This document shows, piece by piece, positions 1,217 to 61,746 of a stretch of 64,000 nucleotides of DNA. The stretch comes from Alphaproteobacteria bacterium. Its GTDB lineage: Bacteria; Pseudomonadota; Alphaproteobacteria; Ferrovibrionales; Ferrovibrionaceae. The notes beneath the pieces are model-generated. The model was not told the origin of the DNA. It searched no databases and saw nothing but the letters and a program-made list of their open reading frames with translations. The translations under genes and the position numbers were made by a program. The stretch is from positions 248,001-312,000 of the forward strand of contig JAFKFH010000006.1 in assembly GCA_017307375.1 (NCBI GenBank). The letters run 5' to 3'. How positions within the stretch are numbered: the first letter of the stretch is position 1; each line of letters begins with the position of its first letter.

Positions 1217-1236
1217 CAGTTTTTCACTCCCCACGA

Positions 1237-1284: not shown

Positions 1285-1311
1285 TCAAGACCACATTCGT
1301 GATCCTGGTCT

Positions 1312-1327
1312 CTGACAGGTCTGTCAG
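1312..1327. promoter_or_regulatory. Inverted repeat before the cupin gene
   Basis: Two perfect 7-base arms, CTGACAG and CTGTCAG, are separated by GT and end 19 bases before the cupin start codon. This spacing suits a repressor operator over the promoter or early leader. The binding protein is unknown. Confidence 0.4.
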
Positions 1328-1346
1328 GACGGCCTATCATCGCGCG

Positions 1347-1883: not shown

Positions 1884-1889
1884 GTATCA

Positions 1890-2648: not shown

Positions 2649-2744
2649 TCTCACGGTCGCCGCCGCCACGGCTGCTGGCCAGACGGCCCTCGTCATCCCG
2701 GCTTTCGCCGCGGCGACGATTGGCCTTTACGGCCAAGGCGGCCG

Positions 2745-3482: not shown

Positions 3483-3527
3483 CCCGTGTCCTCTACATGA
3501 GGCGTGTTCCCGTTTCAAACGCCAGTT

Positions 3528-6773: not shown

Positions 6774-6796
6774 CGCGGAGCCCTATGGAAAGAGTC

Positions 6797-6821
6797 GCCC
6801 GGCCACATGACGTGGCCGGGC
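6797..6821. other. Intercistronic hairpin between the binding-protein gene and livH
   Basis: A perfect 10-base stem (GCCCGGCCAC with GTGGCCGGGC) and ATGAC loop lies between two minus-strand genes of one operon. There is no T-run, so it is more likely an mRNA-stabilising or partial-termination element that raises binding-protein levels than a full terminator. Confidence 0.55.
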
Positions 6822-6827
6822 AGGGGG

Positions 6828-8024: not shown

Positions 8025-8064
8025 GCGGGTACTCCCCCCTCCTGGTTGTTCTGCTTGGCCCGGC

Positions 8065-8835
8065 TCAGCGGGCGGTGAAGCCACCGTCGACCGGCAGCGC
8101 CACGCCGGTCACGTAGGATGCATGGTCGGAGGCCAGCCACAGCGCGGCCTCGGCCATCTCCTCGGGCAGGCCGACGCGGCCCAGCGGGATCGCGGCCATC
8201 AGCTTGCGCTTGTTTTCCTCGATGACAGCGGGATCGTTCACCCGGCCGACGAATTGCGGCAGCATCGGGGTCTCGGTCGGGCCGGGGCAGACGACGTTGA
8301 CGCGGACGCGGTCGGCGGCAAAGCGCTGGGCCAGCGACTTGGTCAGGCCGACCACGCCGAACTTGGCCGCCGAATAGACCGGGCTGAACATCGATCCGAC
8401 CAGCCCCGAGACCGAGGCGGTGAACACGATCGCGCCGCCGCCGCGCTTGCGCATATGCGGCACCGCCGCCCCCGCCGACAGCAGCGCCTGGGTCAGGTTC
8501 AGCATGATCGCCTTGTCGTATTCGCCGATGTCGATGTCCTCGACCGCCGCGGGGCCGGGCGTGCCGGCATGGGCCCACAGGATGTCGAGACCGCCGAGCC
8601 AGTCGGCCGCCTCGCCGATATAGCGGCGGCAGTCTTCCTCGCGCGACAGGTCGGCGACGAAGCCGCGCGCCTCGCCACCTGCCGCCTTGACCGCGTCGAC
8701 CACCTCGTCCAGGCCCTGGCGGTTGATGTCGACCGCGGCGATCCTGGCCCCTTCGCGGGCGAAAAGTTCGCAGCCGGCCCGGCCCATGCCGGAGGCGGCG
8801 GCCGAGATGACGGCCAGCTTGTTCTTGAGCCGCAT
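8065..8835 (-). CDS. Short-chain dehydrogenase/reductase
   Basis: A 256-residue classical SDR. The cofactor region (AVISAAASGMGRA) is a slightly atypical version of TGxxxGxG. The catalytic Ser lies in ASVSGLVGS and Tyr/Lys in YSAAK, followed by NVVCPGPTETPM and the common C-terminus VTGVALPVDGGF. It oxidises or reduces a hydroxyl/keto group with NAD(P). It sits between the aldehyde dehydrogenase and binding protein genes of one operon, suggesting consecutive alcohol or hydroxy-acid oxidation steps on the imported solute. Confidence 0.9.
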   Translation of the reverse strand: MRLKNKLAVISAAASGMGRAGCELFAREGARIAAVDINRQGLDEVVDAVKAAGGEARGFVADLSREEDCRRYIGEAADWLGGLDILWAHAGTPGPAAVEDIDIGEYDKAIMLNLTQALLSAGAAVPHMRKRGGGAIVFTASVSGLVGSMFSPVYSAAKFGVVGLTKSLAQRFAADRVRVNVVCPGPTETPMLPQFVGRVNDPAVIEENKRKLMAAIPLGRVGLPEEMAEAALWLASDHASYVTGVALPVDGGFTAR

Positions 8836-49080: not shown

Positions 49081-50046
49081 TCACGGGGCAGGGGAGCGGC
49101 GGATGCAGCGAAAGCCGATATGGACGGACGAGGTGTCGACCGTCTGGGGTTGACGGGCTGCCGGGCGATAGCGCCGGCAGTAGCTGGGGGCGCAGAGATG
49201 CGAGCCGCCTTTGAGGACCTTGCGCGGCAGCCGGTCACCGGCGGCGAGATCGCGGCTTTCCGCTTCGCTGCCGCCGCGCGGATTGCGCGGCAGGCAGCAC
49301 GGCTTGCCCGCCGTCGCGGCGTGATCGGCCCGGTACCAGTCGGCAGTCCATTCCCAGACATTGCCGATCATGTCGTAGAGGCCATGGCCGTTGGCCGGGA
49401 AGGCCGCGACCGGCGAGGTGCCGACATGGCCGTCTTCGGCCAGATTCTCGACCGGAAAGCGGCCCTGCCAGGTGTTGGCCCGGTGAATGCCGTCGGGCAC
49501 CAGCGTGTCGCCCCAGGCGAAGGCTGCGCCGTCGAGGCCGCCGCGGGCCGCATATTCCCATTCCGCCTCGGTCGGCAGTTCCTTGCCCTGCCAGCGGGCA
49601 TAGGCTTCGGCGTCGGCCAGGGCGACATGGACCACGGGGTGATCGGCCCGGCCGTCGATCGTGCTGTCGGGGCCTTGCGGATGCCGCCAGTCGGCACCGG
49701 GAACGAGGTGCCACCAGCGCGTCCAGTCGTCGGTGCCGGCCTGACCCGGCTGGCGGAAGACCAGCGACGCGGGCACCAGCAAGGCGGGGTCGGCGCCCGG
49801 ATAATCCTCGGGTCGGGGCTGCCGTTCGGCGAGGGTGACGTAGCCGGTCGCCGCGACGAAATGCGCGAAATCGGCGTTGGTCACCGGAAAGCGATCGATC
49901 CAGAAACCATCTACCGCAACCAGGTGTGCCGGTGCCTCTTCGGGGTAGTGGACATCCGACCCCATGCGGAACGTACCGCCGGGCAGCCGGACCATCGTTT
50001 CCTCGGCTGCGGACGCAGGGGCGCAGGCCGCAAGTCCACCGTTCAT
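49081..50046 (-). CDS. Formylglycine-generating enzyme (SUMF1 family)
   Basis: A 321-residue protein: RLPGGTFRMGSD, RFPVTNADFAHFV, LPTEAEWEYAARGG, GNVWEWTADWY, and the copper-binding catalytic pair Cys285 and Cys290 in GGSHLCAPSYCRRYR. It converts the cysteine of CxPxR in the neighbouring sulfatase to formylglycine. ATG 50046 has GGAG 6 bases upstream; ATG 50070, directly after the AraC stop, has no site. No signal peptide is visible, so it acts in the cytoplasm. Confidence 0.93.
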   Translation of the reverse strand: MNGGLAACAPASAAEETMVRLPGGTFRMGSDVHYPEEAPAHLVAVDGFWIDRFPVTNADFAHFVAATGYVTLAERQPRPEDYPGADPALLVPASLVFRQPGQAGTDDWTRWWHLVPGADWRHPQGPDSTIDGRADHPVVHVALADAEAYARWQGKELPTEAEWEYAARGGLDGAAFAWGDTLVPDGIHRANTWQGRFPVENLAEDGHVGTSPVAAFPANGHGLYDMIGNVWEWTADWYRADHAATAGKPCCLPRNPRGGSEAESRDLAAGDRLPRKVLKGGSHLCAPSYCRRYRPAARQPQTVDTSSVHIGFRCIRRSPAP

Positions 50047-50070
50047 GCTCGTCTCCGCCGGGCCCGACAT

Positions 50071-51120
50071 TCAGGCTTCGCGCTGGGATAGCGACGATCC
50101 GCCGGTCCTCGCAATTGCCATTTGGCGCCACGCCATGGGTGTCAGCCCTTCCCAGCGCCGGAAGGCGCGGACGAAATGGGCCGGGTCGGAATAGCCCAGG
50201 GCACGGGCGACGCTGCCCACCGGCAGCGGCGACTCCGCAAGATAATGGCGCGCCCGGCCCTGGCGCCATTGATCGAGCAGCGCCTCGAATGACGTGCCGC
50301 GGGCGGCCAGCCGGCGCTGGAGGCTGCGCGGCGATATGCCTAGCGTCTGGCTCGTATCGAGCAAGGTCGGGGGCCGGACCAGAACGACGGCCTCGAACAA
50401 GGACAGGAGGATCCCGACCAGCGCGTCGTCGTCGAGGGGCCCCGGTCCGGCCGGCAGCGAGACGTCGTCCCTGATGATACCGGCCGCGCCAATGGCAACA
50501 TTCCGCCGGTCGAGCAAGGCGGCATCGAAACTGAGCGTGAGTTCGGCCCCCGGCGCGAAACTGACCGGCGTTTGCAGCTTGTCCTCATAGCGCGCCATGG
50601 TGACACGCGCGCGATGCGGCAACGTGACGTGGATGTCGGCCCGGGCATCGCCGACAATCCCCCGGATTGCGCCGAGCAGGAATCCCGCAACCCCCTCGTT
50701 CAGCACGGCGGCATGGTCGGTGTCGCTGTCGGCGAGCCGATGGTGCATGACGGCGCGGTCGCCGCGCAGTCTGAGGCCGTAGGCGATGCCACCCTGCAGG
50801 GAAGGCATGTGGCGAACATGCGCGACCAGGCATTCACCCAGGGTACCGCCGGCGAAGAGCGCCTGACCGGTCGGGCCAAGTTCGGCAGGATCGGCCGAGG
50901 TCGCCAGGTCGAGGCCGATGGCCGGGTTGTCGCTGCGCCGGGCCAGATTCTGCAACACGCTGCAGATCTGGGCACGGGCGACGACGCGGCCTATCGGCAG
51001 GGTGTCTTCTGCCTTGATGCCCGCCTGTGCCAGCATTGCCGGCAGGGACAGGCCGTGCGCCTGTGCCACCTGGGGCAGCATGTGGAGCAGAGCCAGCCTG
51101 ACGGGATGTCGGTCCCACAT
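50071..51120 (-). CDS. AraC family transcriptional regulator (OruR-like, arabinose-binding-like N-terminal domain)
   Basis: A 349-residue regulator: an N-terminal ligand domain of the PF12625 type and a C-terminal AraC double HTH (SQTLGISPRSLQRRLAARGTSFEALLDQWRQ, VARALGYSDPAHFVRAFRRWEG). The ATG at 51120 gives the usual family length; the upstream ATG at 51210 lies inside an inverted repeat and is unlikely. Its stop is adjacent to a start of the FGE gene, so the regulator is probably first in an araC-FGE-sulfatase operon, and it diverges from the Lpd-like gene. Confidence 0.88.
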   Translation of the reverse strand: MWDRHPVRLALLHMLPQVAQAHGLSLPAMLAQAGIKAEDTLPIGRVVARAQICSVLQNLARRSDNPAIGLDLATSADPAELGPTGQALFAGGTLGECLVAHVRHMPSLQGGIAYGLRLRGDRAVMHHRLADSDTDHAAVLNEGVAGFLLGAIRGIVGDARADIHVTLPHRARVTMARYEDKLQTPVSFAPGAELTLSFDAALLDRRNVAIGAAGIIRDDVSLPAGPGPLDDDALVGILLSLFEAVVLVRPPTLLDTSQTLGISPRSLQRRLAARGTSFEALLDQWRQGRARHYLAESPLPVGSVARALGYSDPAHFVRAFRRWEGLTPMAWRQMAIARTGGSSLSQREA

Positions 51121-51196
51121 CGCTGCCGCCGTCCTTCCCTTCGATACTGTCGCGATTGTGCCACGGCTCGGCCCGTCTCGATAGATTGGCAGGAAA

Positions 51197-51220
51197 CTTT
51201 CACCCTTCATAAGGTGAAAG
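51197..51220. promoter_or_regulatory. Inverted repeat between the AraC and Lpd-like genes
   Basis: Perfect 8-base arms CTTTCACC and GGTGAAAG flank an 8-base spacer. It lies between two divergent genes, 77 bases from the AraC start and 60 bases from the flavoprotein start. A dimeric regulator is the likely binder. Confidence 0.45.
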
Positions 51221-51279
51221 ATTGTGCCGGTGTCGGCGTCGCCAGAAACCCGCGCCTTGGTCATGGCGTTAGCCCGGCC

Positions 51280-52650
51280 ATGAGAAACATGCATTGCGAT
51301 GTCGCTATCATCGGCGCCGGCACGGCCGGCCTGGCCGCCCGCCGTGCGGCGATTGCGGCCGGCGCCCGTACCGTGCTGATCGAGCGCGGGCCGGGCGGCA
51401 CCACCTGCGCCAGGGTCGGCTGCATGCCGTCCAAGCTGCTTGTTGCCGCGGCCGAGGCAGCCCAGGCAGTGCGCGCGGCGGCACATTTCGGCCTGCGCTG
51501 CGACGGGCCTGCAGTCGACGGCCGTGCGGTGATGGCCCGGGTCCAGCGCCGGCGCGACGGCTTTGTCGCCGGCATGCTGGACGATCTCGATCGTCTCGGC
51601 CCTGACGAGAAGGTCATGGGCGAGGCGCGTTTCATCGATCGCAACACCCTGATCGTCGGTGACGAGGTCAAGATTGCCGCCGCGGCAACGGTGATCGCCA
51701 CGGGGTCGGTTCCGCGCCTGCCCGAGGACCTCGTCGCGCTCGGCGACCGGGTGATCACGTCCGACGCGGCGTTCGACCTGGACGACCTGCCGGCAAGCCT
51801 GGCCGTGCTCGGTGCCGGGCCGCTCGGGCTGGAACTCGGCCAGGCCTTCGCGCGGCTGGGCGTGTCGGTGCACCTGTTCGACCAGAGTGTGTCGCTCGGC
51901 GGATTGGCCGACCCGGGCATCATGGCCGAGGCGCGCCATGTCTTCGGTGCCGACATGGCGATCGCGCTGGGGGTCAGGGTCCGGGCGTCGGCGGATGGCG
52001 ACGGCGTGCGGCTCGCCTGGCGCGATGCCGACGACCAGCCCCGCTCGGTCCGGGTCGACCGCGTGCTGGTGGCGGCCGGCCGGGTGCCCGGCGTGGCCAG
52101 CCTCGATCTTGCGCGCACCGGCCTCGCCCTCGACGACGACGGGCTGCCGCAGGTCGATCCGGTCACCCGGGCCTGCGGCCGCAACCCGATCTTCATGGCC
52201 GGCGACGCCGACGGCGACCGGCCGGTGCTGCACGAGGCCGCGATCGAGGGTCGCATCGCGGGCTGGAACGCGGCGACCTATCCGGTGATCGAGGCCGGCC
52301 GCCGGCATGTGGCACTGGCGGTCGTCTTCACCGATCCGGGGCTGGCCCGGGTGGGGGAAGCCGGCCCGGGCGAAGGCGGCGTCACCGGCTGCCACGACTT
52401 TGCCGGCAACGGGCGCGCCGTGATCGCGGGGCGCGGCGCCGGATTGCTCAAGATCCATGTCGGGCGCGACGGCCGGGTGCGTGGCGCCGAGATGGTCGCG
52501 CCGGGGGCCGAGCATCTGGCTCATCTGCTGGCCTGGGGCATCGCTGCCGGGATCGACCTTCCCCGCATGCTGGACATGCCGTTCTACCACCCGACCTTCG
52601 AGGAGGGCGTGCGCGGGGCGCTGGAAGATGCCCGGAAAAGGCTCGGCTGA
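51280..52650 (+). CDS. Dihydrolipoamide dehydrogenase-like flavoprotein disulfide reductase
   Basis: A 456-residue class I pyridine nucleotide-disulfide oxidoreductase. FAD site VAIIGAGTAGLAARR, redox pair Cys43/Cys48 (TTCARVGCMPSK), NAD site VLGAGPLGLELGQAFARLG, and the C-terminal His437-Glu442 pair (FYHPTFEEG) are all there, so it should be an active dithiol reductase. It is not next to any 2-oxoacid dehydrogenase gene, and the sequence is shorter in the dimer domain than housekeeping Lpd. The partner disulfide is unknown. It ends 20 bases before an EcfG-type promoter. Confidence 0.88.
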   Translation: MRNMHCDVAIIGAGTAGLAARRAAIAAGARTVLIERGPGGTTCARVGCMPSKLLVAAAEAAQAVRAAAHFGLRCDGPAVDGRAVMARVQRRRDGFVAGMLDDLDRLGPDEKVMGEARFIDRNTLIVGDEVKIAAAATVIATGSVPRLPEDLVALGDRVITSDAAFDLDDLPASLAVLGAGPLGLELGQAFARLGVSVHLFDQSVSLGGLADPGIMAEARHVFGADMAIALGVRVRASADGDGVRLAWRDADDQPRSVRVDRVLVAAGRVPGVASLDLARTGLALDDDGLPQVDPVTRACGRNPIFMAGDADGDRPVLHEAAIEGRIAGWNAATYPVIEAGRRHVALAVVFTDPGLARVGEAGPGEGGVTGCHDFAGNGRAVIAGRGAGLLKIHVGRDGRVRGAEMVAPGAEHLAHLLAWGIAAGIDLPRMLDMPFYHPTFEEGVRGALEDARKRLG

Positions 52651-52669
52651 GATTTTCTGCGCGGGGGTT

Positions 52670-52694
52670 GGAACCCGGCTGCCGCCCCGGCGTT
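52670..52694 (+). promoter_or_regulatory. EcfG-type stress promoter for the 58-residue protein
   Basis: GGAAC (52670-52674), 16 bases, then CGTT (52691-52694): an exact match to the alphaproteobacterial EcfG consensus. The -10 lies 24 bases before the start codon, with a GGAGG ribosome site between. Confidence 0.7.
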
Positions 52695-52717
52695 CATCGG
52701 CGTCTGGAGGTGCTGCG

Positions 52718-52894
52718 ATGCCGATGACCTTCAACCAGATCTGGTTGGGCCTGTTCCTTCTGGTGGCAGCCCTGGCCGCGGCCAGCGACTTCGGGGCGCC
52801 CGATCTTCAGCGCGACCTGGTCGCCCGGATCGCCGATGGCGACGCTTGCTCCGCGCCGGCGCCCTGTGTCCCGGAACTTGCGGCGGTACGCTGA
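52718..52894 (+). CDS. Small membrane protein, 58 residues
   Basis: No family recognised. An N-terminal hydrophobic helix (IWLGLFLLVAALAAASDFGA) is either a membrane anchor or a signal peptide, followed by about 35 polar residues with two cysteines (DACSAPAPCVPE). TGGAGG stands 7 bases before the ATG, and a perfect EcfG-type promoter lies upstream, which supports expression under stress. Confidence 0.62.
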   Translation: MPMTFNQIWLGLFLLVAALAAASDFGAPDLQRDLVARIADGDACSAPAPCVPELAAVR

Positions 52895-52898
52895 AGTT
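52873..52898 (+). promoter_or_regulatory. Weaker EcfG-type promoter for the BON-DUF72 pair
   Basis: GGAAC (52873-52877), 17 bases, then AGTT (52895-52898). The -10 has one mismatch. It overlaps the end of the small membrane protein gene and lies 43 bases before the BON start, so the three genes could also be read from 52670. Confidence 0.45.
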
Positions 52899-52941
52899 GT
52901 CCCGCTACCGCCGGTAATCCCGGTTGCAGGAGGTAGCATCA

Positions 52942-53529
52942 ATGTCGCAGCGTTTTCGTCCTGATCCGTCGCACCGCGACCTCGGCTATTCCCCCTATGA
53001 CGATGATCGCGGGCGTTATGCGGCCGGCCTGCAGCGCGACGACTATCGGCGGTCGCCGGAACGCGACGATATCGCTGGCAGATACCCCGATCGGGATGGC
53101 GGCGACGTCCAAACCGGAGATGTCGATGCCCGTGGCCGGTCGAAGGCCAGCGAGTCTACCGGCCGGGTCCATGGCCCGGTCTACGGCGTCTCGGGCGCCT
53201 CGTCCTCACGAGACTATTGGCGCCGCGCCCTCCGGCGCCAGCCCTCGGTGCCCGAGGGACCGCATCGCGGACACGGCCCGAAGGGTTACACCCGCACCGA
53301 TGCCCGGCTGCATGAAGCGATCTGCGACCGCCTCACCGACGATCCCGATATCGACGCCCGCAACATCACCGTCACGGTGAGCGATGGTGTGGTCACGCTC
53401 GAAGGGCGGGTCGACAATCGACTGTCGAAGCATATCGTCGAGGACTTGGTCGACGATTGCGGTGGGGTGAAGGGCATCCGCAATCTGATCGATGTCGAGG
53501 CTCGTTCCGGCACGCCAGGCCGGGCATGA
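52942..53529 (+). CDS. BON-domain protein
   Basis: A 195-residue protein. The first 110 residues are disordered and rich in Arg, Asp, Gly and Ser, and the C-terminal 70 form one BON domain (LHEAICDRLTDDPDIDARNITVTVSDGVVTLEGRVDNRLSKHIVEDLVDDCGGV). BON domains bind membranes or lipids and appear often in stress-induced envelope proteins. There is no signal peptide, so it may be cytoplasmic. AGGAGG lies 7 bases upstream. It overlaps the DUF72 gene (ATGA). Confidence 0.88.
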   Translation: MSQRFRPDPSHRDLGYSPYDDDRGRYAAGLQRDDYRRSPERDDIAGRYPDRDGGDVQTGDVDARGRSKASESTGRVHGPVYGVSGASSSRDYWRRALRRQPSVPEGPHRGHGPKGYTRTDARLHEAICDRLTDDPDIDARNITVTVSDGVVTLEGRVDNRLSKHIVEDLVDDCGGVKGIRNLIDVEARSGTPGRA

Positions 53530-54470
53530 CCCAGCCGCGCCGGCCCGCTGGGTGGCCGGCCAGCGTCCGCATCGGCATATCCGGCTGGACCTATGCTCCC
53601 TGGCGTGGGGCTTTCTACCCCGATGACCTGCCGAAGAAGCGCGAGCTTGCCTTTGCCGCTCGCCGCTTCGAGGCGATCGAGATCAACGGCACCTTCTATG
53701 GCCTGCAGACCCCGGCAAGCTTCGGTCGCTGGGCGGAGGAGACGCCGGAAGACTTCGTCTTCGCCGTCAAGGGCTCGCGCTTCATCACCCATCTGTTGCG
53801 CCTGCGCGATATCGAGACGCCGCTGGCCAATTTCGTTGCCTCCGGCCTGCTGCGTCTGGGGGCCAAGCTTGGCCCTATACTATGGCAGTTCCCGCCAAGC
53901 TTTCGCTTCGAGCCCGACCGGCTGGAGGCCTTCCTCGCCCTGTTGCCGCAGCATACCGATGCGGCGGCGCGGCTGGCGCGGCGCCATGACGGGCGCCTGA
54001 ACGGCCGCGCCTGGATCGAAACGGATGCACGTCGCCGCATGCGCCATGCGATCGAAATCCGGCACGACAGTTTCCGCGACCCTGCCTTCGTCGCCCTGCT
54101 GCGCCGCTACAACGTCGCGCTGGTCTGCGCCGACACCGTCAAGTGGCCGCTGCTGATGGACCTCACCGCGGATTTCGTCTATTGCCGGCTGCATGGGTCG
54201 CAGGAACTCTACCGCAGCGCCTATCCGGCGGCTGAACTCGACCGCTGGGCCGATCGTGTCGGCGCATGGGCGACAGGTCAGCCGATGGAAGACGGCGATT
54301 TTGCTGGGCGTGGCCGTGGTGTCCGGCGTCGGCGTGATGTCTTCGTGTTCTTCGACAACACCGACAAGCTCCAGGCCCCCATTGATGCCGGGGGCCTGAT
54401 CGAACGCGTCGGACGCCGTCTCGGCGCTCAGGCCAGCGTGTGCAGTTCGCCGGCCGTGGCCGGCGGCTGA
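53526..54470 (+). CDS. DUF72 (YecE-like) protein
   Basis: A 314-residue TIM-barrel-like DUF72 protein: RIGISGWTYAPWRGAFYPDDLP at the start, FEAIEINGTFYGLQTPASFGRWAEETP, ILWQFPPSF, and DVFVFFDNTDK near the end. Function is unknown in the family; proposals include nucleic-acid or cofactor handling. Its start overlaps the BON gene, and its end overlaps the diiron oxidase gene tail-to-tail by 43 bases. Confidence 0.88.
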   Translation: MTQPRRPAGWPASVRIGISGWTYAPWRGAFYPDDLPKKRELAFAARRFEAIEINGTFYGLQTPASFGRWAEETPEDFVFAVKGSRFITHLLRLRDIETPLANFVASGLLRLGAKLGPILWQFPPSFRFEPDRLEAFLALLPQHTDAAARLARRHDGRLNGRAWIETDARRRMRHAIEIRHDSFRDPAFVALLRRYNVALVCADTVKWPLLMDLTADFVYCRLHGSQELYRSAYPAAELDRWADRVGAWATGQPMEDGDFAGRGRGVRRRRDVFVFFDNTDKLQAPIDAGGLIERVGRRLGAQASVCSSPAVAGG

Positions 54471-55369
54471 CCCGCGCCTTCGCGGAACCGGGCTCCCATC
54501 GCGGCGAAATGGCGGCGATAGCGCTCGAAACAGCGCGCCCCGCACCACAGCCGCAGCAAGGCACCCTCGGCGATCGGTCGCGCGCAGGCCGGATTGTCGG
54601 CTACGAGCGGCAGCAGCACCTCGTGGTTCCAGGCCGCCGAATGCCGCACGTCGAGGGTCGCATGCAGCGTGAAGTAATGGCGTGTGCCCGCCGCCAGCCC
54701 GAGCCGCCGCAGGCCCGCATCGACAAAGGGCGCTCGCGTCGGCGCCGTCAGCTCGATCACCCCCAGCGCGCCGATCGACTGGTAGGCGTAGCGCCGATTG
54801 GCAGCCAGCCCGACCATCAGATTGGCCAGCGCCAGCGCTTCCGCCACGACCGGGTCGGGCATCGTGTCGAGTCCAAGGTGATCGGCCAGCCGCGCCAGCA
54901 TCGGGCCATGCATCCCGCGCGCATTGCCTCGCCCCATCTCGTCCCAGAAGTTCCGCGCCATTTCGAGTTTGGGCCGATCGGGCAGGCGCAGCTGAGTCAG
55001 CGCGACCAAGTCTTCGAACCCGGCCTCGCCTGCCACTTCCTGGCGCAGGAACCAGCGCATCTGCGCCAGATCGGCCTTTTCCGCCAGATAGGGAAACAGC
55101 GGATCGTACTGACCTGGCCCGTCGCGCTTGAGATCTTCGAACCAGGCGACGAAGGCGTCGGCTTCATCCGGCACGGCATCGAGCAGCGGGGCAACGGCCG
55201 TGCGGGCATCCTCGATGAAGGCATGTTCGGCGAGGCGGGCATGGTGCTCGCGCTCCAGCGCGGTCCGCCAGTCGGGGTCGCCGGCCACGGCCGGCACCAG
55301 GCGGTTGCGATTGAAGCGCGCGAGATCCATCTGCTGCTGATGGGAGAGGATGCCGGGTACGGCAGACAT
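54428..55369 (-). CDS. Heme-oxygenase-like diiron oxidase (HDO, iron-containing redox enzyme family)
   Basis: A 313-residue all-helical protein. The second metal-binding helix matches HDO enzymes exactly: His236-x3-Asp240-x2-His243 (LHATLDVRH). Glu111/Glu115, Glu144 and His154 (FWDEMGRGNARGMHG) and Glu206 (GVIEL) are further candidate ligands. HDO-fold enzymes use O2 for N-oxygenation, C-C cleavage or desaturation of amino acids and fatty acids in natural-product pathways. It starts 5 bases after the methyltransferase stop, so the two form one operon. Substrate unknown. Confidence 0.82.
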   Translation of the reverse strand: MSAVPGILSHQQQMDLARFNRNRLVPAVAGDPDWRTALEREHHARLAEHAFIEDARTAVAPLLDAVPDEADAFVAWFEDLKRDGPGQYDPLFPYLAEKADLAQMRWFLRQEVAGEAGFEDLVALTQLRLPDRPKLEMARNFWDEMGRGNARGMHGPMLARLADHLGLDTMPDPVVAEALALANLMVGLAANRRYAYQSIGALGVIELTAPTRAPFVDAGLRRLGLAAGTRHYFTLHATLDVRHSAAWNHEVLLPLVADNPACARPIAEGALLRLWCGARCFERYRRHFAAMGARFREGAGQPPATAGELHTLA

Positions 55370-55374
55370 GGCAA

Positions 55375-56328
55375 CTACCTTTCCTGGGTGACGACCATCA
55401 GCACGGCCGCGATGCGGTCGGCGCGGCCGTAAGCTGCGGTTTCGAGTTCTTCGCCGAAGACGTCAGGGTCGATTTCCTCGTAATGCCAGTTGCGGCCTGC
55501 CAGGCGCGCAACCATCTCGGCCCGGAAGGCATCGTGGCCGCCGACGATGGCCGACCCGGTGTAGAGAACGAGGCGTCCGCCGGGATTCAGCCGGGCGGCC
55601 GCCTGCTCGGCGATCCGCACCGACAGCGCAGCACCGAGGTCGCCGCCCCCATGGCGATAGCGTCGTCGCCCGGCATCGACCAGGTATGGCGGATTGGCGA
55701 TGATCAGATCGGCCGTGCCCTCGATGCCGTCCAGCACGTCGCTGTGCCGGCAGGCAACATTTGCAAGGCCGTTGATCGCGGCATTGACAGCGGCGAAGCG
55801 CAGCGCGGCATCATTGATGTCGCCCAGCACGACTGCGGCGCCGTTTCCCAGCCAGGCCGCGACCGCAAGTCCGCCGGCACCGCTGCCGGCACCGATGTCG
55901 ACGATGCGGGCGGTATCGACCGGGACGAGCGGCAGCAGCGCGCGAACGAAGCGATAGGTATCCGGGCCGAAGAACACGGCATCCGCGGCGGTCGTGGGAT
56001 AGGCCGAGTGCACGAACAGCTGGTTTCCCAGGGTCGAGCAGCGGATGCGCGCGCGCAGCAGGCCGGCTTCGGGCTGCAGGATCCCGGCGCGGTCCATCAG
56101 CGCCAGCATCTCCGGCGGCGGCAGCATCGGATCGAATGGGCATGACCAGCCGAAGATATCGGCGAGGTCGGCCGCGATCGGGCTGGCGCGGCGTGCCAGA
56201 ACGCGCCGATGGGTTTCCGGCGTCACTGTCGTGAATCGATATCCACCCGAGATCAGCGCGCGGCCCAGCGCCACCAGCGCGGCATCCTCGTGCCCCAATG
56301 CCTCGCCAGGTGCTGTCGGGATCGTCAT
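55375..56328 (-). CDS. Class I SAM-dependent methyltransferase (NPPY type)
   Basis: A 317-residue protein. An N-terminal helical domain of about 100 residues precedes a Rossmann methyltransferase: motif I VDIGAGSGAGG (143-153), acidic loop GDIND, and NPPY (212-215). NPPY marks enzymes that methylate an amide, amine or aromatic nitrogen, as in PrmC. The C-terminal part (RLNPGGRLVLYTGSAIVGG) is normal. The start codon lies only about 9 bases past the stress promoter -10, so the mRNA may be leaderless. It is first in an operon with the HDO gene. Confidence 0.85.
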   Translation of the reverse strand: MTIPTAPGEALGHEDAALVALGRALISGGYRFTTVTPETHRRVLARRASPIAADLADIFGWSCPFDPMLPPPEMLALMDRAGILQPEAGLLRARIRCSTLGNQLFVHSAYPTTAADAVFFGPDTYRFVRALLPLVPVDTARIVDIGAGSGAGGLAVAAWLGNGAAVVLGDINDAALRFAAVNAAINGLANVACRHSDVLDGIEGTADLIIANPPYLVDAGRRRYRHGGGDLGAALSVRIAEQAAARLNPGGRLVLYTGSAIVGGHDAFRAEMVARLAGRNWHYEEIDPDVFGEELETAAYGRADRIAAVLMVVTQER

Positions 56329-56334
56329 GTGGCC

Positions 56335-56361
56335 GGAACCAACAGCCGGGGGTTTGGTTCC
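56335..56361. promoter_or_regulatory. Symmetric bidirectional EcfG-type promoter
   Basis: Perfect arms GGAACCAA and TTGGTTCC flank 11 bases. On each strand this reads GGAAC-N16-GGTT, one base from the EcfG consensus CGTT at the -10. One element therefore could drive both the methyltransferase-HDO operon (minus) and the ATP-grasp gene (plus). Confidence 0.65.
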
Positions 56362-56396
56362 TCCGGTCGCGATGCAAGGCGGATGGGAGACGTGGC

Positions 56397-57698
56397 GTGC
56401 GCTTTCTCGGCGTCGGGGACGACAACAGCCTGGGCGATCTTTATCGCCAGCTCCAGTCGGCCGGGCATGATGTCCGGGTGCATGTCGACAACCCCGACTG
56501 CCATCGGACCCTCGATGGTTTCGTCACGCGGGTGGCCGACTGGCGCGCCCATCTCGACTGGCTGCGTGCTGCCGGCAGGGATGGCGTCCTGCTGTTCGAA
56601 ACGGCACATGACGGCCCGCTGCAGGACCGGCTGCGCCGGGACGGTTTCAACGTCATCGGCGGCAGCAGTTTTGGCGACCGGCTGGAGAACGATCGCGCCT
56701 TCGGCCAGCACTGGATGCGCGCCGCCGGGTTGCAGACCGCGGAGACGCGCGAATTCAGGTCGTTCGCCGCTGCGGCCGAGTTCATCGAGCGCCGGCGCCG
56801 CCGCTATGTCTTCAAGTTGTCGGGCGGCACGTTCTCTTCCAGCCAGAACTATGTCGGCGTGATGGACGACGGTACCGATGTCCACGCCCTGATGCGCAGA
56901 TACGACAGGCACTGGCCGGGCGAGGTGCCGACCTTCATCCTGATGGATCACGTCTCGGGGGTCGAGGTCGGAGTCGGCGCCTATTTCAATGGCGAGGATT
57001 TCATGGAGCCAGTCTGCCTCGACTGGGAACACAAGCGCTTCTTCGACGGCGACCTCGGCGAGTTGACCGGCGAGATGGGCACGCTAGTCACCTATCGCGG
57101 CGCCGGGGCGCTGTTCGATGCGACGCTGCGGCGGCTGGGCGTGCCGCTGCGCGATGGGGGCTATGTCGGCTACATCAACATCAACACGATCGTCAACGAC
57201 GCCGGTGTCTGGCCGCTCGAGTTCACCTGCCGGTTCGGCTATCCCGGCTTCGCTATCCTGTCCGCTTTGCATCGCGAGGACTGGGGCCAGCTGTTCGGAC
57301 GCATGATCCGGCGCGACAGCCTGGCCTTCGCCACGGCGCCCGGCTATGCCGTCGGCGTCGTCCTGACCGTCCCGCCCTTCCCCTATGGCGGCCATGCCGG
57401 CCTGCCGTCGGCCGCGGGGCTGCCGATCGTCATCCGCGGCGAGATCGACGAAGCTACCCGCCGCCACCTGCATTTCGACGAGGTGGCCGAGGTTGCGGGG
57501 GCGCTGCAGACCACCGGACCGCTCGGCTATGTCATCGTGGCGACCGGGGCCGGCGCTACCGTGCCGGACGCCCGCGCCGCATGCTATGGACTGGTCGACC
57601 GCATCGCGATGCCCAACCTGCGTTTCCGCCGCGACATTGGCCAGCGTTTCGTTGGCGGTGAGGGCGCCAGATTGCGTCGCCTCGGCTGGCTCGAGTAA
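56397..57698 (+). CDS. ATP-grasp ligase, phosphoribosylamine-glycine ligase (PurD)-like
   Basis: A 433-residue protein with PurD-like order: N-terminal domain (RFLGVGDDNSLGDLYRQLQ), ATP-grasp core (RYVFKLSGGTFSSSQNYVGV, GVEVGVGAYFNGEDF), magnesium region (YININTIVNDAGVWPLEFTCRFGYPGF) and C-terminal domain. ATP-grasp ligases join a carboxylate to an amine through an acyl phosphate. It diverges from many PurD features at the N-terminal phosphoribosyl site and is not near pur genes. GTG 56397 with GGGAG upstream. Probably a peptide- or amide-forming step linked with the HDO and methyltransferase. Confidence 0.8.
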   Translation: MRFLGVGDDNSLGDLYRQLQSAGHDVRVHVDNPDCHRTLDGFVTRVADWRAHLDWLRAAGRDGVLLFETAHDGPLQDRLRRDGFNVIGGSSFGDRLENDRAFGQHWMRAAGLQTAETREFRSFAAAAEFIERRRRRYVFKLSGGTFSSSQNYVGVMDDGTDVHALMRRYDRHWPGEVPTFILMDHVSGVEVGVGAYFNGEDFMEPVCLDWEHKRFFDGDLGELTGEMGTLVTYRGAGALFDATLRRLGVPLRDGGYVGYININTIVNDAGVWPLEFTCRFGYPGFAILSALHREDWGQLFGRMIRRDSLAFATAPGYAVGVVLTVPPFPYGGHAGLPSAAGLPIVIRGEIDEATRRHLHFDEVAEVAGALQTTGPLGYVIVATGAGATVPDARAACYGLVDRIAMPNLRFRRDIGQRFVGGEGARLRRLGWLE

Positions 57699-57708
57699 CG
57701 CGGCGGGT

Positions 57709-58116
57709 TCAGAAGACGGTGTTGCGCTGGCGCCCTTCGGAATACTGGAACGCCGGCAGCGCCTCGAGCTGCGCCTTGGTCAAGTTGACCATGATCCGCC
57801 CGCCCTTGTCCGAAAGGTGCAGTTCCCGCCAGCCCAATGCGACGTCGCGTTGATCGGTGCCGAGGAACTTGCCGACGTCGACGATGACGTCGGCGGCCCG
57901 GCCGTCGCCGTCCAGCCGTACGGCGCGAACCACCCCGATGACCGCTTCCTGGCCGTTGGTGATCTCGCGGCCGATCAGCTTGCCGGCCTCGACCTTGTCG
58001 GGGGCGGGGGCGACGGCGGTCGCCTCCTGCGCGCGCACCAGCATCGGCAGGGAAATATCGATCACGGCAACACAGGCGAGGGTGCCGATCAGCGCCAGGG
58101 CGGCGAGCTTTGCCAT
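57709..58116 (-). CDS. PRC-barrel domain protein with signal peptide
   Basis: A 135-residue protein. The N-terminal hydrophobic stretch (LAALALIGTLACVAVIDISLP) is a signal or anchor, and a PRC-barrel follows from about residue 45 (KLIGREITNGQEAVIGVVRAVRLDGDGRAADVIVDVG). PRC-barrels of this sort occur in envelope or stress proteins of alphaproteobacteria. GGAGG is 8 bases upstream, and an exact EcfG-type promoter lies before it. It ends 10 bases from the convergent ATP-grasp gene. Confidence 0.85.
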   Translation of the reverse strand: MAKLAALALIGTLACVAVIDISLPMLVRAQEATAVAPAPDKVEAGKLIGREITNGQEAVIGVVRAVRLDGDGRAADVIVDVGKFLGTDQRDVALGWRELHLSDKGGRIMVNLTKAQLEALPAFQYSEGRQRNTVF

Positions 58117-58152
58117 CGTTGCGTCCTCCGCGGTCGTTCAGGCCCCGCAGAC

Positions 58153-58178
58153 AACGGGCAAGTCGCCCCGAAGGTTCC
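58153..58178 (-). promoter_or_regulatory. EcfG-type stress promoter for the PRC-barrel gene
   Basis: On the minus strand GGAAC (58178-58174), 17 bases, then CGTT (58156-58153): an exact consensus match, 36 bases before the start codon. Confidence 0.7.
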
Positions 58179-58182
58179 CCAC

Positions 58183-58208
58183 GGAACGGGCGGTGCCTGC
58201 CGCCGGTT
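58183..58208 (+). promoter_or_regulatory. EcfG-type stress promoter for the acidic 135-residue protein
   Basis: GGAAC (58183-58187), 17 bases, then GGTT (58205-58208), with one mismatch in the -10. It is back-to-back with the PRC-barrel promoter and 38 bases before the start codon. Confidence 0.55.
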
Positions 58209-58246
58209 TTGCACGGCGACACTGCAAACAGGCCAGGAGGAATGCC

Positions 58247-58654
58247 ATGCGACGCCATCGTTCACCCGCGGGGCAGGAGGAAGATAGCCAGATCGAGCTG
58301 TTCGACCAGGCGCGAACCGCCGCGCCCGAGTTGTCGGTCGCCCGCGCCGTGGTCGGCCGCGAGGCCGAAGACGAAGTCGAAGGCGTCAGCGGCGCGGATT
58401 GGGTGGCGGCCGAGCGGGCTCGTCCCGATCTGCCGGACGAGACGATTGACGGCCTGTCGGAACTCGAGGAGGAGGTGCGCCGCCAGGCCGAGGACGTTCC
58501 GACCGGCGCACCGAGCCCGTTGCTGTTCGACACCGATCGCCCCGTCGAGCCGGAAGAAGCGCTGGCCAACCAGGGCGAATTCCCCGATCTCGCCGATCAG
58601 GGCGAAATCCCGGATCCCCAACTCCCGGATACCCGACGTCGGGGCGGTCGATGA
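58247..58654 (+). CDS. Acidic hypothetical protein, 135 residues
   Basis: No family recognised. The protein is strongly acidic, rich in Glu, Asp, Pro and Ala, probably disordered, and carries a small internal repeat near the end (NQGEFPDLADQGEIPDPQLPD). AGGAGG lies 6 bases upstream of the ATG. An EcfG-type promoter before it suggests a hydrophilin-like stress protein, which is inference. Confidence 0.7.
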   Translation: MRRHRSPAGQEEDSQIELFDQARTAAPELSVARAVVGREAEDEVEGVSGADWVAAERARPDLPDETIDGLSELEEEVRRQAEDVPTGAPSPLLFDTDRPVEPEEALANQGEFPDLADQGEIPDPQLPDTRRRGGR

Positions 58655-58672
58655 AAAATGTGTGGTCAGGGT

Positions 58673-58697
58673 GGAACCGGGGCAGGGCCGCCGCGTT
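58673..58697 (+). promoter_or_regulatory. EcfG-type stress promoter for a short terminated transcript
   Basis: GGAAC (58673-58677), 16 bases, then CGTT (58694-58697): an exact consensus match. The region downstream ends at a terminator within 70 bases and encodes no convincing protein. Confidence 0.68.
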
Positions 58698-58703
58698 TAA
58701 AGC

Positions 58704-58768
58704 CCGTTCATGAGTAATTGCCCACCACCCACGACCTCAGGGGCGGCTATCGGCCGCCCCATTTTTCT
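58704..58768 (+). ncRNA. Candidate stress-induced small RNA
   Basis: An exact EcfG-type promoter 6-9 bases upstream and a rho-independent terminator at 58740-58766 bound a transcript of about 65 bases. Just before the terminator stem is an unpaired C-rich run (CCCACCACCCACGACC, 58721-58736), the type of region that pairs with purine-rich ribosome sites. The one possible reading frame (ATG 58710, 23 residues) runs through the terminator and has no ribosome site. No known RNA family recognised. Confidence 0.5.
58740..58766 (+). terminator. Rho-independent terminator
   Basis: An 8-base perfect stem (GGGGCGGC with GCCGCCCC), a TATCG loop and ATTTTT follow the candidate small RNA. It would also stop read-through from the acidic protein gene. 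Confidence 0.75.
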
Positions 58769-59644
58769 TCACCCCTGGTAGGTGCAGGCGAAGACATGAG
58801 TGGCCTGGGCACCGGGAGCAAGTTGCCGCATCGACGGCTTCACGCCGATATCCCCGGCAAATCCGACGGGATCGCCGTGGCCCGTCCAGCCTTCTATGCA
58901 CAGGAACGGCGCATCGTCCTTGGTCCACAATGCCAGATGCGGCAAGTCCCGGACAGTGACGCGCAAAGCCTCCCCGGCATCGTTGGCGAAGGTCAGCGTC
59001 GTCGACGCCGCATTCAGGAAACACAGCGCGTCGGCCTGAAACAGGGCGTGGTTCAGGGCAAGACGGGTACCGCCGTGGGTGAGTGGCACCGGCCGCATTT
59101 CCGGTGCGAAGAGGCCCTCCGGCGTGATGACCGGAACCGATGCCTTCTCCGGACGATCGAAACGAATCTCGTGGGCGGCTGCGGGGCTGTCGAAAGGCCA
59201 GCGAAACGCAGGATGGAACCCCATCGCATAGGGAAGCGGCTCGTCGCCGGGGTTGCCGACGGTTGCGGTCGTCTCGATCGAATCGGCCGTCAGGCGATGC
59301 GTGACCGTCAGGGCGAAGGCAAAAGGGTATTGGGCGCGGCTGGCCGCATCGTCGCGCAGAACGAAGGTCGCATGGTCCTCGGCCCGGGACTGCAGAACGA
59401 ACTCGCGATCGCGGGCAAAACCGTGGCCGCCGATCGCATAGGCCCGGCCGGCGACGTGCAGCCTGTTGTCATGGCACCGTCCGACGATGGGAAACAGCAG
59501 CGGGGCCCGGCGCGGCCAATAGGGCGGGTCGCCCGACCAGAGCAGATCGCGATCGCCAACCGACCACGATTGCAACTCGGCGCCGTGGCGCGCGATCACC
59601 GCGCGGGCGCTGCCCTGCCTCAGCTCGATATCGTCGCCGGCCAT
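58769..59644 (-). CDS. Aldose 1-epimerase (mutarotase) family protein
   Basis: A 291-residue galactose-mutarotase-fold protein: LLFPIVGRCHDNRL, IGGHGFARDREF with His, MGFHPAFRWPF with the second catalytic His, and LALWTKDDAPFLCIEGWTGHGD with Glu near the end. Such proteins interconvert anomers of free or phosphorylated sugars (YeaD-like). It stands alone on the minus strand with its own promoter. Confidence 0.88.
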   Translation of the reverse strand: MAGDDIELRQGSARAVIARHGAELQSWSVGDRDLLWSGDPPYWPRRAPLLFPIVGRCHDNRLHVAGRAYAIGGHGFARDREFVLQSRAEDHATFVLRDDAASRAQYPFAFALTVTHRLTADSIETTATVGNPGDEPLPYAMGFHPAFRWPFDSPAAAHEIRFDRPEKASVPVITPEGLFAPEMRPVPLTHGGTRLALNHALFQADALCFLNAASTTLTFANDAGEALRVTVRDLPHLALWTKDDAPFLCIEGWTGHGDPVGFAGDIGVKPSMRQLAPGAQATHVFACTYQG

Positions 59645-59668
59645 CGCGATCTCCCTGTTCGAGCCGCG

Positions 59669-59697
59669 ATTCTAGTGGCCGGGCGGGGCAATCTCAA
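59669..59697 (-). promoter_or_regulatory. Sigma-70-like promoter of the mutarotase gene
   Basis: On the minus strand TTGAGA (59697-59692) and TAGAAT (59674-59669) are separated by 17 bases, 25 bases before the start codon. Confidence 0.55.
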
Positions 59698-59739
59698 CCC
59701 GAGCGGCCGATGCTGCCTGCACCGCCCGCGAACTGCCGC

Positions 59740-61746
59740 CTACAGCGCTGCGATCGCCGACAGAAAGTCGCCGACTTCACGCTGCAGGGCGGCGCTGGCG
59801 GCTGCCACCTCGTGCGACGCTGCATCGACGACGCCGGCGGCCGCTTCCGACCGTCCGGCGGCACCCAGGACCGTGTCGCTCGATCGCGATACCAGGCCGA
59901 CCGCTTGCGCGGCGCTGCTGACGTTGCCGGCGATTTCCCGGGTGGCCGACGACTGCTGTTCGATCGCCGAGGCTACGGCGGCCGACGCATCGTGCAACTG
60001 GTCGATCGTGCCGCGGATTCGGTTGATGATGTCGACGGTGCCGCCGACGCTGTCCTGAATGCCGCTGATCAGCGTGCCGATCTCTTCGGTCGCCTTCGAC
60101 GTCTGGTCGGCCAAACTCTTCACCTCGCCGGCGACGACGGCGAAACCCTTGCCCGCGTCCCCGGCCCGCGCCGCTTCGATCGTCGCGTTCAGCGCCAGCA
60201 GGTTGGTCTGGCCGGCGATGGCGCGGATCAACCCGACCACCGTGCCGATCGAACGGGCGATTTCGTCAAGCCGGGCAATGCGCCCCTCGGCCTCCTTGCC
60301 CTGTTCGACCGCGGCGCCCGCGATCGTCGAGGACCGGGCGATGCGGCCGGCGATGTCGCTGATCGATGCCGACAGCTGCCCGCTGGTCGTGGCCACGGTC
60401 TGCAGGTTGGCGTCCGTCTGCCGCGCCGCAGCCGAGACTTTCGACGATTCGGCGTTGACCTCGGCGGCCGTGGCTGTAATCGCGCTCGATGCCGCGCTCA
60501 TCCGTTCGGCCGAACGGCTAAGCGTTGCCATCACCTTCTGCATGTTGACGTCATAGTCGCGAACCAGCCCCGCCATTTTGTCGGCCTGGGCCAGCTTGCG
60601 CGCGATCGCTTCCTTGGCGGCGGTGATGTCGGTCGCATACTTGACCACCTTGAACGGCCGGCCGGCGAGATCGAGGATCGGGTTGTAGGATGCCTGGATC
60701 CAGACCTCCCGGCCGCCCTTGGCCAGGCGCCGGTACTCGGCGGTCAGGTGCTCGCCCTGGTTCAACATCGCCCAGAACGCCCGGTATTCTTGGCTCTCGG
60801 CATAGTCGTCGTCGACGAACATGCGGTGCTCGCGGCCCAGAACCTCGTCGAGGCGGTAGCCCATGACACTCAGGAAGTTCTCGTTGGCGGCGAGAATGGT
60901 TCCATCGGTGCCGAATTCGATCACCGCCTGCGACTTGCCGATGGCTGCGATCTGCCCGGCATAGTCGGCAGCCTGCAGCTTGGCGGTCGTCACGTCGGTC
61001 GCGAACTTGACGATCTTGAACGGCTGGCCGTCGGCATCGAGGATCGGGTTGTAGGATGCCTGGATCCAGACCGCGCGCCCGCCCTTGGCCATCCTCATGT
61101 ATTCGCCAGCCTCGTAGGCCCCCTGGGACAGGCGGTCCCAGAACAGGGCGTATTCGGCCGAGCGGGCGTAGTCCGGATCGACGAACTGGCGATGATGGCG
61201 CCCGACGATTTCCGCCTGGGTATAACCCGTCAGTTCCAGGAACTGGCGATTGGCGCCGGTCACCGTGCCGTCGAGATCGAACTCGACCACCGCGACGGCC
61301 CTGGCGATCGCGGCTACCTGTCCGGCGTGGTCGGCGGCACGGCGCTGCTGCGCGGTGATGTCGGTCGCGTATTTCAGGACCTTGAATGGGCGGCCGTCGC
61401 GGTCGAGCACCGGGTTGTAGCTGGCCTGCAGCCAGACTTCCGAACCGTCCTTGGCGAAGCGCTTGTAGACGGCGCTGCAATGCTCGCCGCGCGCCAGCGC
61501 CGCCCAGAAGCGGCGATACTCCTCCGACGCCGCCACCGATGGCGCGACGAACAGGTTGTGGTGACGGCCGACGATCTCGTCGAGGCGATAGCCCATGACG
61601 TCGAGGAAATTGTCATTGGCGGTGAGGATTCTGCCGTCGGTACCGAATTCGATGATCGCCTGCGACTTGTCCATCGCCGCGGCCATAGCCTGCAATTCGA
61701 CGGCGTAGGCCGAGGCGAATCTTCCTACCGATCTCGAGTTTGGCAT
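59740..61746 (-). CDS. Soluble methyl-accepting chemotaxis protein with three PAS domains
   Basis: A 668-residue receptor. Three tandem PAS domains (about residues 20-135, 145-260, 267-382) are near copies of each other; each ends in a form of [13 protein letters not shown]...[12 protein letters not shown] coiled signalling domain follows, with the hairpin tip [42 protein letters not shown]. There is no membrane segment, no HAMP domain and no CheR-tethering pentapeptide at the end. It probably senses an intracellular redox or ligand signal and acts on CheA. Cofactor unknown. Confidence 0.92.

What the first reader, a model, noticed from the sequence alone, without database searches (positions are those of the whole stretch)
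54428..57698. Methyltransferase, diiron oxidase (HDO) and ATP-grasp ligase form an undescribed three-gene module
The NPPY methyltransferase and the HDO-fold enzyme are 5 bases apart in one operon; the PurD-like ligase diverges from the same promoter. N- or amide-methylation, O2-dependent oxidation and amide-bond formation are three steps of small natural-product pathways. No core enzyme such as an NRPS is needed if the substrate is an amino acid. Placed in a stress island, it may make a protective metabolite or metal-binding compound. I know of no described pathway with this set; the product is unknown.
Basis: partly seen in the sequence, partly recalled or inferred. Interest (0 to 1): 0.82.

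Follow-up and report, generated by a model that had tools for sequence, protein, structure and literature searches.

The report
Stress-linked amino-acid methylating and oxidising genes
Two neighbouring bacterial genes, a methyltransferase and an iron-dependent oxidase, recur together in distant bacteria, sometimes beside a peptide-bond-forming enzyme, and may make a small modified amino-acid compound that the cell switches on under stress.

Summary
HDO and methyltransferase (MT) form a conserved pair; the PurD-like ligase is optional. In 249 genomes of one family HDO occurs in 38, MT in 27, both in 23, mostly unlinked (Fisher p=1.2e-18, not tree-corrected). Of the 64 other MT loci held, 18 have such an HDO within 5 kb, 13 a second HDO type, one a YqcI/YcgG gene, a family of guanidine N-oxygenases. 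The HDO keeps seven candidate metal ligands; its nearest solved structures are the N-oxygenases HrmI, RohS and SznF. Some relatives have arginine-related neighbours, ADI/DDAH enzymes or cyanophycin genes; the window's genome gave no match for either. The MT/ligase gap carries a two-way EcfG-type motif; such motifs precede 24 of 66 HDOs against 12 of 851 other genes. I read it as an N-oxygenating, N-methylating amino-acid pair with interchangeable amide ligases under general-stress control; substrate, product and activity are inferred. Closest described system: mangotoxin (HDO, ATP-grasp ligases, arginine deiminase).

The parts
54428..55369 (-). HDO: heme-oxygenase-like diiron oxidase/oxygenase, HrmI-like (313 aa)
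   Evidence: PF14518 5.9e-42; nearest PDB chain HrmI, 1.3e-27, 1.9e-43 with a profile; model pLDDT 85.2, Foldseek order HrmI, RohS, SznF; E111, E144, H154, E206, H236, D240, H243 invariant in 16 of 16
55375..56328 (-). MT: N-methyltransferase with NPPY motif (317 aa); the true start may lie a little downstream
   Evidence: PF05175 1.1e-15; NPPY invariant in 13 of 13; model pLDDT 89.3; first Foldseek matches the gentamicin N-methyltransferase and AerE, TMq 0.60-0.72, rmsd 5-7 A
56335..56361 (.). Palindromic EcfG-type promoter motif, GGAAC-N16-GGTT on each strand
   Evidence: published consensus in PMC6599016 and PMC7083833 (passages)
56397..57698 (+). PurD-like ATP-grasp ligase, GTG start (433 aa)
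   Evidence: GARS_A 1.2e-10, GARS_C 1.2e-6, the latter under its cut-off; TIGR00877 90.7 bits against 288; PurD motifs PNTGGMG and EFNxRFGDPE replaced by ELTGEMG and EFTxRFGYPG
52670..52694 (+). EcfG-type motif about 230 bp upstream of the BON-domain ORF at 52924 (context)
   Evidence: BON PF04972
58153..58178 (-). EcfG-type motif beginning 62 bp upstream of the PRC-barrel gene 57709-58116 (context)
   Evidence: PRC PF05239

Best explanation
The conserved core is the MT-HDO pair. It methylates and N-oxygenates a side-chain nitrogen of a basic amino acid, most likely arginine, free or in a small peptide. The HDO would use a diiron site and O2 as HrmI and SznF do; the MT would add a methyl group to an amine, guanidine or ureido nitrogen. 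An amide ligase then joins the modified residue to another amino acid or carboxylate. Which ligase does this varies by lineage; in the window it would be the PurD-like ATP-grasp protein read from the same gap. In Alphaproteobacteria the sigma factor EcfG turns the genes on as part of the general stress response. Shown here: gene identities, conserved residues and motifs, repeated pairing, genome co-occurrence, enrichment of the promoter motif. Inferred: activity, substrate, order of steps, product, EcfG control itself, and that the window's ligase acts on the same compound.
For: Co-occurrence of HDO and MT at mostly unlinked loci: 38, 27 and both 23 of 249 genomes, p=1.2e-18; by genus 22, 19 and both 15 of 96, p=3.6e-9. 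Tree of 64 HDOs: 3 changes of linkage against a shuffled mean of 15.9; two linked rows, L156 and L089, sit inside a solo clade. MT partners within 5 kb over the 65 MT loci held, window included: HDO 19, second HDO type 13, YqcI/YcgG 1. In 398 genomes of the phylum MT is in 18; 17 of these have one of the three oxygenase types: 3 the window's HDO type in the genome (one of them unlinked), 13 the second HDO type adjacent, 1 YqcI/YcgG adjacent. YqcI/YcgG members studied so far are guanidine N-oxygenases (PMC10849742, passages). Arginine hints: ADI/DDAH genes beside HDO or MT in L006, L056, L059, L131, L141 and fused to MT in L147; of 80 genomes 7 have such a gene, 6 of them with HDO, and in 4 it adjoins HDO or MT; cphA within 5 kb of MT in 7 of 65 loci, one of them a co-directional run with MT and HDO. 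Ligases within 5 kb of MT: PurD-like 6, a small ATP-grasp 5, CphA 7, GCS2 5, in all 23 of 65 loci. Fold neighbours of the HDO are N-oxygenases. EcfG-type motif before 24 of 66 HDOs against 12 of 851 other genes, p=3e-21, rows not independent.
Against: No activity, substrate or product was measured. The window's genome gave no ADI/DDAH and no CphA match, so the arginine link comes from some relatives. 15 of 38 HDO genomes had no MT match and 4 of 27 MT genomes no HDO match at the limits used. In the phylum sample only 3 of 18 MT genomes have the window's HDO type. 32 of 65 MT loci have no oxygenase and 42 none of the four ligases within 5 kb. The EcfG-type motif is before 8 of 45 MT and 1 of 6 ligase loci, that one being the window. 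HrmI acts on lysine. The YqcI case is one locus. PurD's EFN reads EFT in the three close ligases; if this is the metal site, as I recall, activity is not assured. Loci were gathered by homology and include near copies (L012-L014, L148/L157, L189/L191).
Confidence: 0.5

Rival explanations
1. Only the MT-HDO pair is a unit; the PurD-like ATP-grasp protein is an independent stress gene that merely shares the gap and its promoter motif.
For: Ligase in 3 of 249 genomes against 38 with HDO; divergently transcribed; relatives in other settings, on a Roseomonas plasmid beside a type III PKS and in Halarchaeum; in one of the 3 genomes (L146) it is not near MT or HDO; a small SET protein is beside it in 5 of the 7 loci looked at.
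Against: All 3 ligase genomes of that family also have MT and HDO; the ligase lies beside MT in L004, L089 and L123, about 0.9 kb from it in L151, and, as a version of 24% identity, between MT and HDO in L006; in other lineages other ligases lie near the pair.
Confidence: 0.25
2. The HDO is a lysine N-oxygenase like HrmI and BelK, making an N-hydroxy or nitro lysine derivative, and the arginine-related neighbours are incidental.
For: HrmI is the nearest solved protein by sequence and fold; all seven candidate ligand residues are shared; HrmI oxidises lysine (PMC13108848, passages).
Against: Identity is 26-27%, too low to carry over the substrate; ADI/DDAH or cyanophycin genes are neighbours in several lineages.
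Confidence: 0.2
3. The MT modifies a protein or RNA (PrmC- or RsmC-like) and the HDO is a separate stress oxidase or iron/O2 protein; the pairing reflects co-regulation only.
For: The MT's best NCBIfam match is PrmC, far below cut-off, and RsmC is its best profile match in the PDB by sequence; the genes sit among stress genes.
Against: The first fold matches are the gentamicin N-methyltransferase and AerE; co-occurrence at unlinked loci, the ADI fusion, the cyanophycin run and the second oxygenase types beside MT.
Confidence: 0.1
4. Chance neighbours in a stress island.
For: HDO without MT nearby is common in the family scanned, and apart from one syntenic group no fixed neighbour was seen.
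Against: Recurrent pairing in Myxococcota and three classes of Pseudomonadota, and the co-occurrence test.
Confidence: 0.03

Closest known systems
Mangotoxin cluster mboABCDE (PMC13185094)
   Same: An HDO with two ATP-grasp amino-acid ligases and an arginine deiminase, acting on an arginine-containing tripeptide. The paper reports 1447 HDOs near an ATP-grasp ligase and at least 25 such cluster types, so this module may be among them.
   Different: The word methyltransferase does not occur in that paper; MboA forms an alkyne at carbon and needs a partner, MboB; the window HDO is HrmI-like and its genome gave no ADI/DDAH match; EcfG-type motif here. Whether one of the 25 types is this one was not checked (supplements not available).
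HrmI/BelK lysine N-oxygenases
   Same: HrmI is the nearest solved sequence and fold; the seven candidate ligand residues are shared.
   Different: 26-27% identity; the hormaomycin and belactosin settings are recalled and nothing like them was seen beside this gene.
SznE/SznF of streptozotocin
   Same: SznF's HDO domain oxidises N-methylarginine (PMC10849742, passages); six ligand positions align. That SznE makes the methylarginine is recalled.
   Different: No cupin domain on the window HDO (313 aa); the MT was not compared with SznE.
RohS N-oxygenase
   Same: Second nearest fold.
   Different: 18-19% identity; its role on 2-aminoimidazole is recalled.
PurD
   Same: Matches PurD over most of its length.
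   Different: Below the family cut-off; two PurD motifs changed; a canonical purD elsewhere.

Membership tests
HDO superfamily | PF14518 / heme-oxygenase-like helical fold | tested here: met
HDO superfamily | Three His and three carboxylate ligand residues present | tested here: met
   conserved 16 of 16 and in HrmI
HDO superfamily | Binds a dimetal cofactor and activates O2 | not testable with these tools
   needs protein
HrmI/BelK lysine N-oxygenase | Six-electron N-oxidation of lysine | not testable with these tools
   needs enzyme assay
SznF | HDO domain with a C-terminal cupin domain | tested here: not met
   313 aa, only PF14518 found
PurD (TIGR00877) | Score over the curated cut-off | tested here: not met
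   90.7 against 288; a canonical purD elsewhere at 527.7
PrmC (TIGR03534) | Score over the curated cut-off | tested here: not met
   73.7 against 199.1
Amino-modifying class I methyltransferase | NPPY-type motif | tested here: met
   13 of 13
HDO + ATP-grasp small-peptide cluster (mangotoxin kind) | HDO near an ATP-grasp ligase | tested here: met
   window; also L004, L006, L089, L151
HDO + ATP-grasp small-peptide cluster (mangotoxin kind) | Ligase joins amino acids; product is a modified small peptide | not testable with these tools
   needs assay
HDO + ATP-grasp small-peptide cluster (mangotoxin kind) | Dedicated redox partner (MboB-like) | not tested
   no search was made
EcfG regulon | GGAAC-N16/17-[C/G]GTT motif near the start codon | tested here: met
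   56335-56361 on both strands; consensus
EcfG regulon | Expression lost in an ecfG mutant | not testable with these tools
   needs transcript data

The most novel reading that the evidence does not exclude
A widespread, undescribed pathway of Pseudomonadota and Myxococcota in which arginine (free, or as Asp-Arg from cyanophycin) is N-methylated and N-oxygenated to an N-oxy-guanidine, -urea or nitroso-type unit and joined by an interchangeable amide ligase, giving a small metal-binding or nitric-oxide-releasing protectant, made in Alphaproteobacteria under EcfG control; distant or unrelated oxygenases (HrmI-like HDO, a longer HDO, a YqcI/YcgG heme enzyme) fill the same step.
Probability: 0.25. 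Interest if true: 0.85.

Novelty: new variant of a known kind. Interest (0 to 1): 0.62.

Why it matters
If right, many environmental Alphaproteobacteria make a stress product from an amino acid that nobody has looked for; methylation joins the HDO/ATP-grasp toolbox; and in some lineages a nitrogen store (cyanophycin) is tied to oxidative chemistry. The gene sets are short enough to rebuild in vitro, and the promoter motif gives a prediction that one ecfG-mutant transcriptome can test.

Tried and rejected
Rejected: the ligase as the cell's PurD; the trio as an obligatory unit; CphA as a required partner (5 of 80 genomes, 3 of them among the 38 family genomes with HDO); ADI/DDAH as a required partner (7 of 80). 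The 80 genomes were my choice: the window's, the 38 with HDO, 4 with MT only, 37 with neither. Solo HDOs showed no fixed neighbour apart from one syntenic group. Rfam gave nothing at gathering threshold in 50000-60000. Phage records gave only distant matches to the ligase, at most 29% identity. The Mur-ligase neighbours of L128 and L134 were not counted as partners. The EcfG pattern (N16-17, C or G before GTT) was fixed after I had seen the window gap, so the window is not an independent hit. The control of 851 other genes uses crude gene starts; random 345-bp pieces gave 185 of 20700. A first count, 27 of 65, held four loci that had come in twice (L016-L019, again as L058, L067, L061, L093); one search drops those rows and adds later loci. 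The tree leaves out those four and L093 and L151, whose HDO reading frames are interrupted; it is a quick tree with a midpoint root and four long branches, the window's among them, so it cannot tell gain from loss of linkage. The gene caller is crude and missed several MT genes; neighbour counts rest on tblastn and on annotated records.
Full report
What is there. The window lies in a 7.54-Mb genome, an alphaproteobacterium by its kinship labels and its NepR genes. HDO (54428-55369, minus), MT (55375-56328, minus) and a PurD-like ATP-grasp gene (56397-57698, plus) are open frames. The 3' end of the HDO gene overlaps that of the convergent DUF72 gene; BON and PRC-barrel genes lie on either side.

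The HDO. Its closest solved protein is the lysine N-oxygenase HrmI (phmmer 1.3e-27; profile 1.9e-43), then SznF, FlcD-like chains, BesC and RohS. E111, E144, H154, E206, H236, D240 and H243 are invariant in 16 of 16 relatives and align with the same residues in HrmI; the last six also with SznF. E144 sits where SznF carries its additional glutamate (numbering recalled), so a 3H/4C site is possible; the review lists HrmI as 3H/3C (PMC13108848, passages). The model (pLDDT 85.2) matches HrmI (TMq 0.76-0.78), RohS (0.67-0.71) and SznF (0.62-0.71) first by E-value. All three are N-oxygenases by record title or by the passages read; BesC, CADD and FlcD follow.

The MT. NPPY is invariant in 13 of 13. 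The model (pLDDT 89.3) matches first the N-methyltransferase of gentamicin biosynthesis (GenN, name recalled; TMq 0.60-0.65) and AerE of aeronamide (0.70-0.72), at rmsd of 5-7 A, ahead of PrmC and rRNA enzymes. By sequence profile RsmC and HemK score above them. On balance this favours a nitrogen of a small molecule or peptide.

The ligase. It matches PurD over most of its length at 90.7 bits against a cut-off of 288. PurD's PNTGGMG and EFNxRFGDPE read ELTGEMG and EFTxRFGYPG. A canonical purD (527.7 bits) lies on another contig.

Pairing and spread. A scan of named genomes gave 16 HDO loci; MT lies within about 2 kb of HDO in 10 of them, in 2 of these with a ligase between: MAGs or strains of Rhodospirillales, Myxococcales and Polyangiaceae, Nevskia, Sinobacteraceae and Brevundimonas. 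Plasmids add Komagataeibacter, Variovorax, Legionella and Sphingobium. In one family of the same class 38 of 249 genomes have HDO, 27 MT and 23 both; the 3 with the close ligase have both. In one of the 23, G429, HDO and MT are within 8 kb of each other; in the others I saw them apart or on different contigs. So the association does not come from linkage. Fisher p=1.2e-18 by genome and 3.6e-9 by genus; neither is tree-corrected. On the HDO tree linkage needs 3 changes (shuffled mean 15.9, 0 of 500 as low); the linked rows outside the sphingomonad-like group are together, most rows in that group are solo, and L156 and L089 lie as linked rows inside it, which reads as re-linking (limits under Tried and rejected).

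Other partners of the MT. In 398 genomes of the phylum HDO is in 6, MT in 18, both in 3. Thirteen of the 15 MT-only genomes carry, directly beside MT, a second and longer HDO: three of these were scanned and hit PF14518 (465-498 aa), the rest match them by tblastn. One has a YqcI/YcgG gene (PF08892, 7e-52) about 80 bases upstream of MT on its strand; one has nothing I recognised (L185). YqcI/YcgG enzymes studied so far are heme-dependent guanidine N-oxygenases (PMC10849742, passages). With one locus this swap is a lead, not proof. It also means that the MT is not tied to the window's HDO type.

Arginine and ligases. A gene of the ADI/DDAH kind follows HDO in the MT-ligase-HDO-ADI run of L006, is fused ahead of MT in L147, lies just after HDO in L056 (by tblastn only) and L059, and adjoins MT in L131 and L141; the best NCBIfam match of the four tested is dimethylargininase, below cut-off. 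Cyanophycin synthetase lies within 5 kb of MT in 7 of 65 loci, three of them near copies. Sphingobium yanoikuyae pKN1 has cphA, isoaspartyl peptidase, cyanophycinase, MT, HDO and a dicarboxylate symporter in one direction, two of the joints overlapping. The symporter is near MT in 9 of 65 loci, with a 4-bp overlap on three Sphingobium plasmids and on the other strand in some loci. Ligase types within 5 kb of MT: PurD-like 6, an ATP-grasp of about 360 aa related to glutathione and cyanophycin synthases 5, CphA 7, GCS2 5, together 23 of 65. The window's genome itself gave no CphA and no ADI/DDAH match, so these are hints from relatives.

Stress control. The MT/ligase gap reads GGAAC-N16-GGTT on both strands. 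Published sphingomonad consensus: GGAAC-N17-20-GTT and GGAAC-N16-CGTT, with GGTT among natural -10 boxes (PMC6599016 and PMC7083833, passages). The pattern precedes 24 of 66 non-redundant HDO loci (all 24 within a mostly alphaproteobacterial subset of 51), 8 of 45 MT loci, 5 of 7 cphA genes, 1 of 6 ligases (the window's) and 12 of 851 other genes of the same loci. In the window the HDO is the second gene of its pair and so counts as a miss among HDOs. The genome has two NepR matches over cut-off. Eight motif hits fall in the 64-kb window, seven of them between 52.6 and 58.7 kb, the two strands of the gap counted apart.

Reading. A core pair that N-methylates and N-oxygenates a basic amino acid, arginine most likely, with an exchangeable amide ligase, under the general stress response in Alphaproteobacteria. 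The mangotoxin pathway (HDO, two ATP-grasp ligases, arginine deiminase on Leu-Ala-Arg; PMC13185094, passages and sections 7 and 10) shows that an HDO, ATP-grasp ligases and a deiminase do make a small modified arginine peptide. What looks new here is the methyltransferase in the core, the several oxygenase and ligase types beside it, the cyanophycin link in some lineages and the stress motif. No activity has been shown.

Noticed in passing
L156 (NZ_CP115457.1) 392-8131: Cyanophycin genes, MT, HDO and a dicarboxylate symporter form one co-directional run on a Sphingobium yanoikuyae plasmid.
   Followed up: partly
L004 9458-9922; L089 11281-11685; L123 6237-6620; L146 9287-9673; L151 5265-5684: A small SET-domain protein lies near the PurD-like ligase in 5 of the 7 ligase loci looked at (not in the window or L006; L186 and L187 not looked at).
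   Followed up: partly
L170-L179, L181, L183, L184: A second, longer PF14518 HDO type pairs with the MT in 13 genomes, in five of these loci with a GCS2 carboxylate-amine ligase nearby.
   Followed up: partly
L180 6001-7881: A YqcI/YcgG gene (heme guanidine N-oxygenase family) stands about 80 bases upstream of MT where other loci have an HDO.
   Followed up: partly
L147 5076-6905: An ADI/DDAH domain fused to the MT, annotated only as arginine deiminase family protein.
   Followed up: partly
L151 5265-8696: A Sphingomonas daechungensis plasmid holds HDO, MT, PurD-like ligase and SET together, with the HDO and ligase reading frames interrupted.
   Followed up: no
L150 and L190: Novosphingobium sp. 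ES2-1 carries HDO on plasmid p1 and MT on plasmid p2.
   Followed up: no
L186 6001-7275: A PurD-like ligase near a type III polyketide synthase and an aminotransferase on a Roseomonas plasmid.
   Followed up: no
window 52670-58700: Seven of the window's eight EcfG-type motif hits cluster here, with BON and PRC-barrel genes.
   Followed up: partly
L147 and L152: HDO near Ku (and LigD in L147) genes, another sign of stress islands.
   Followed up: no
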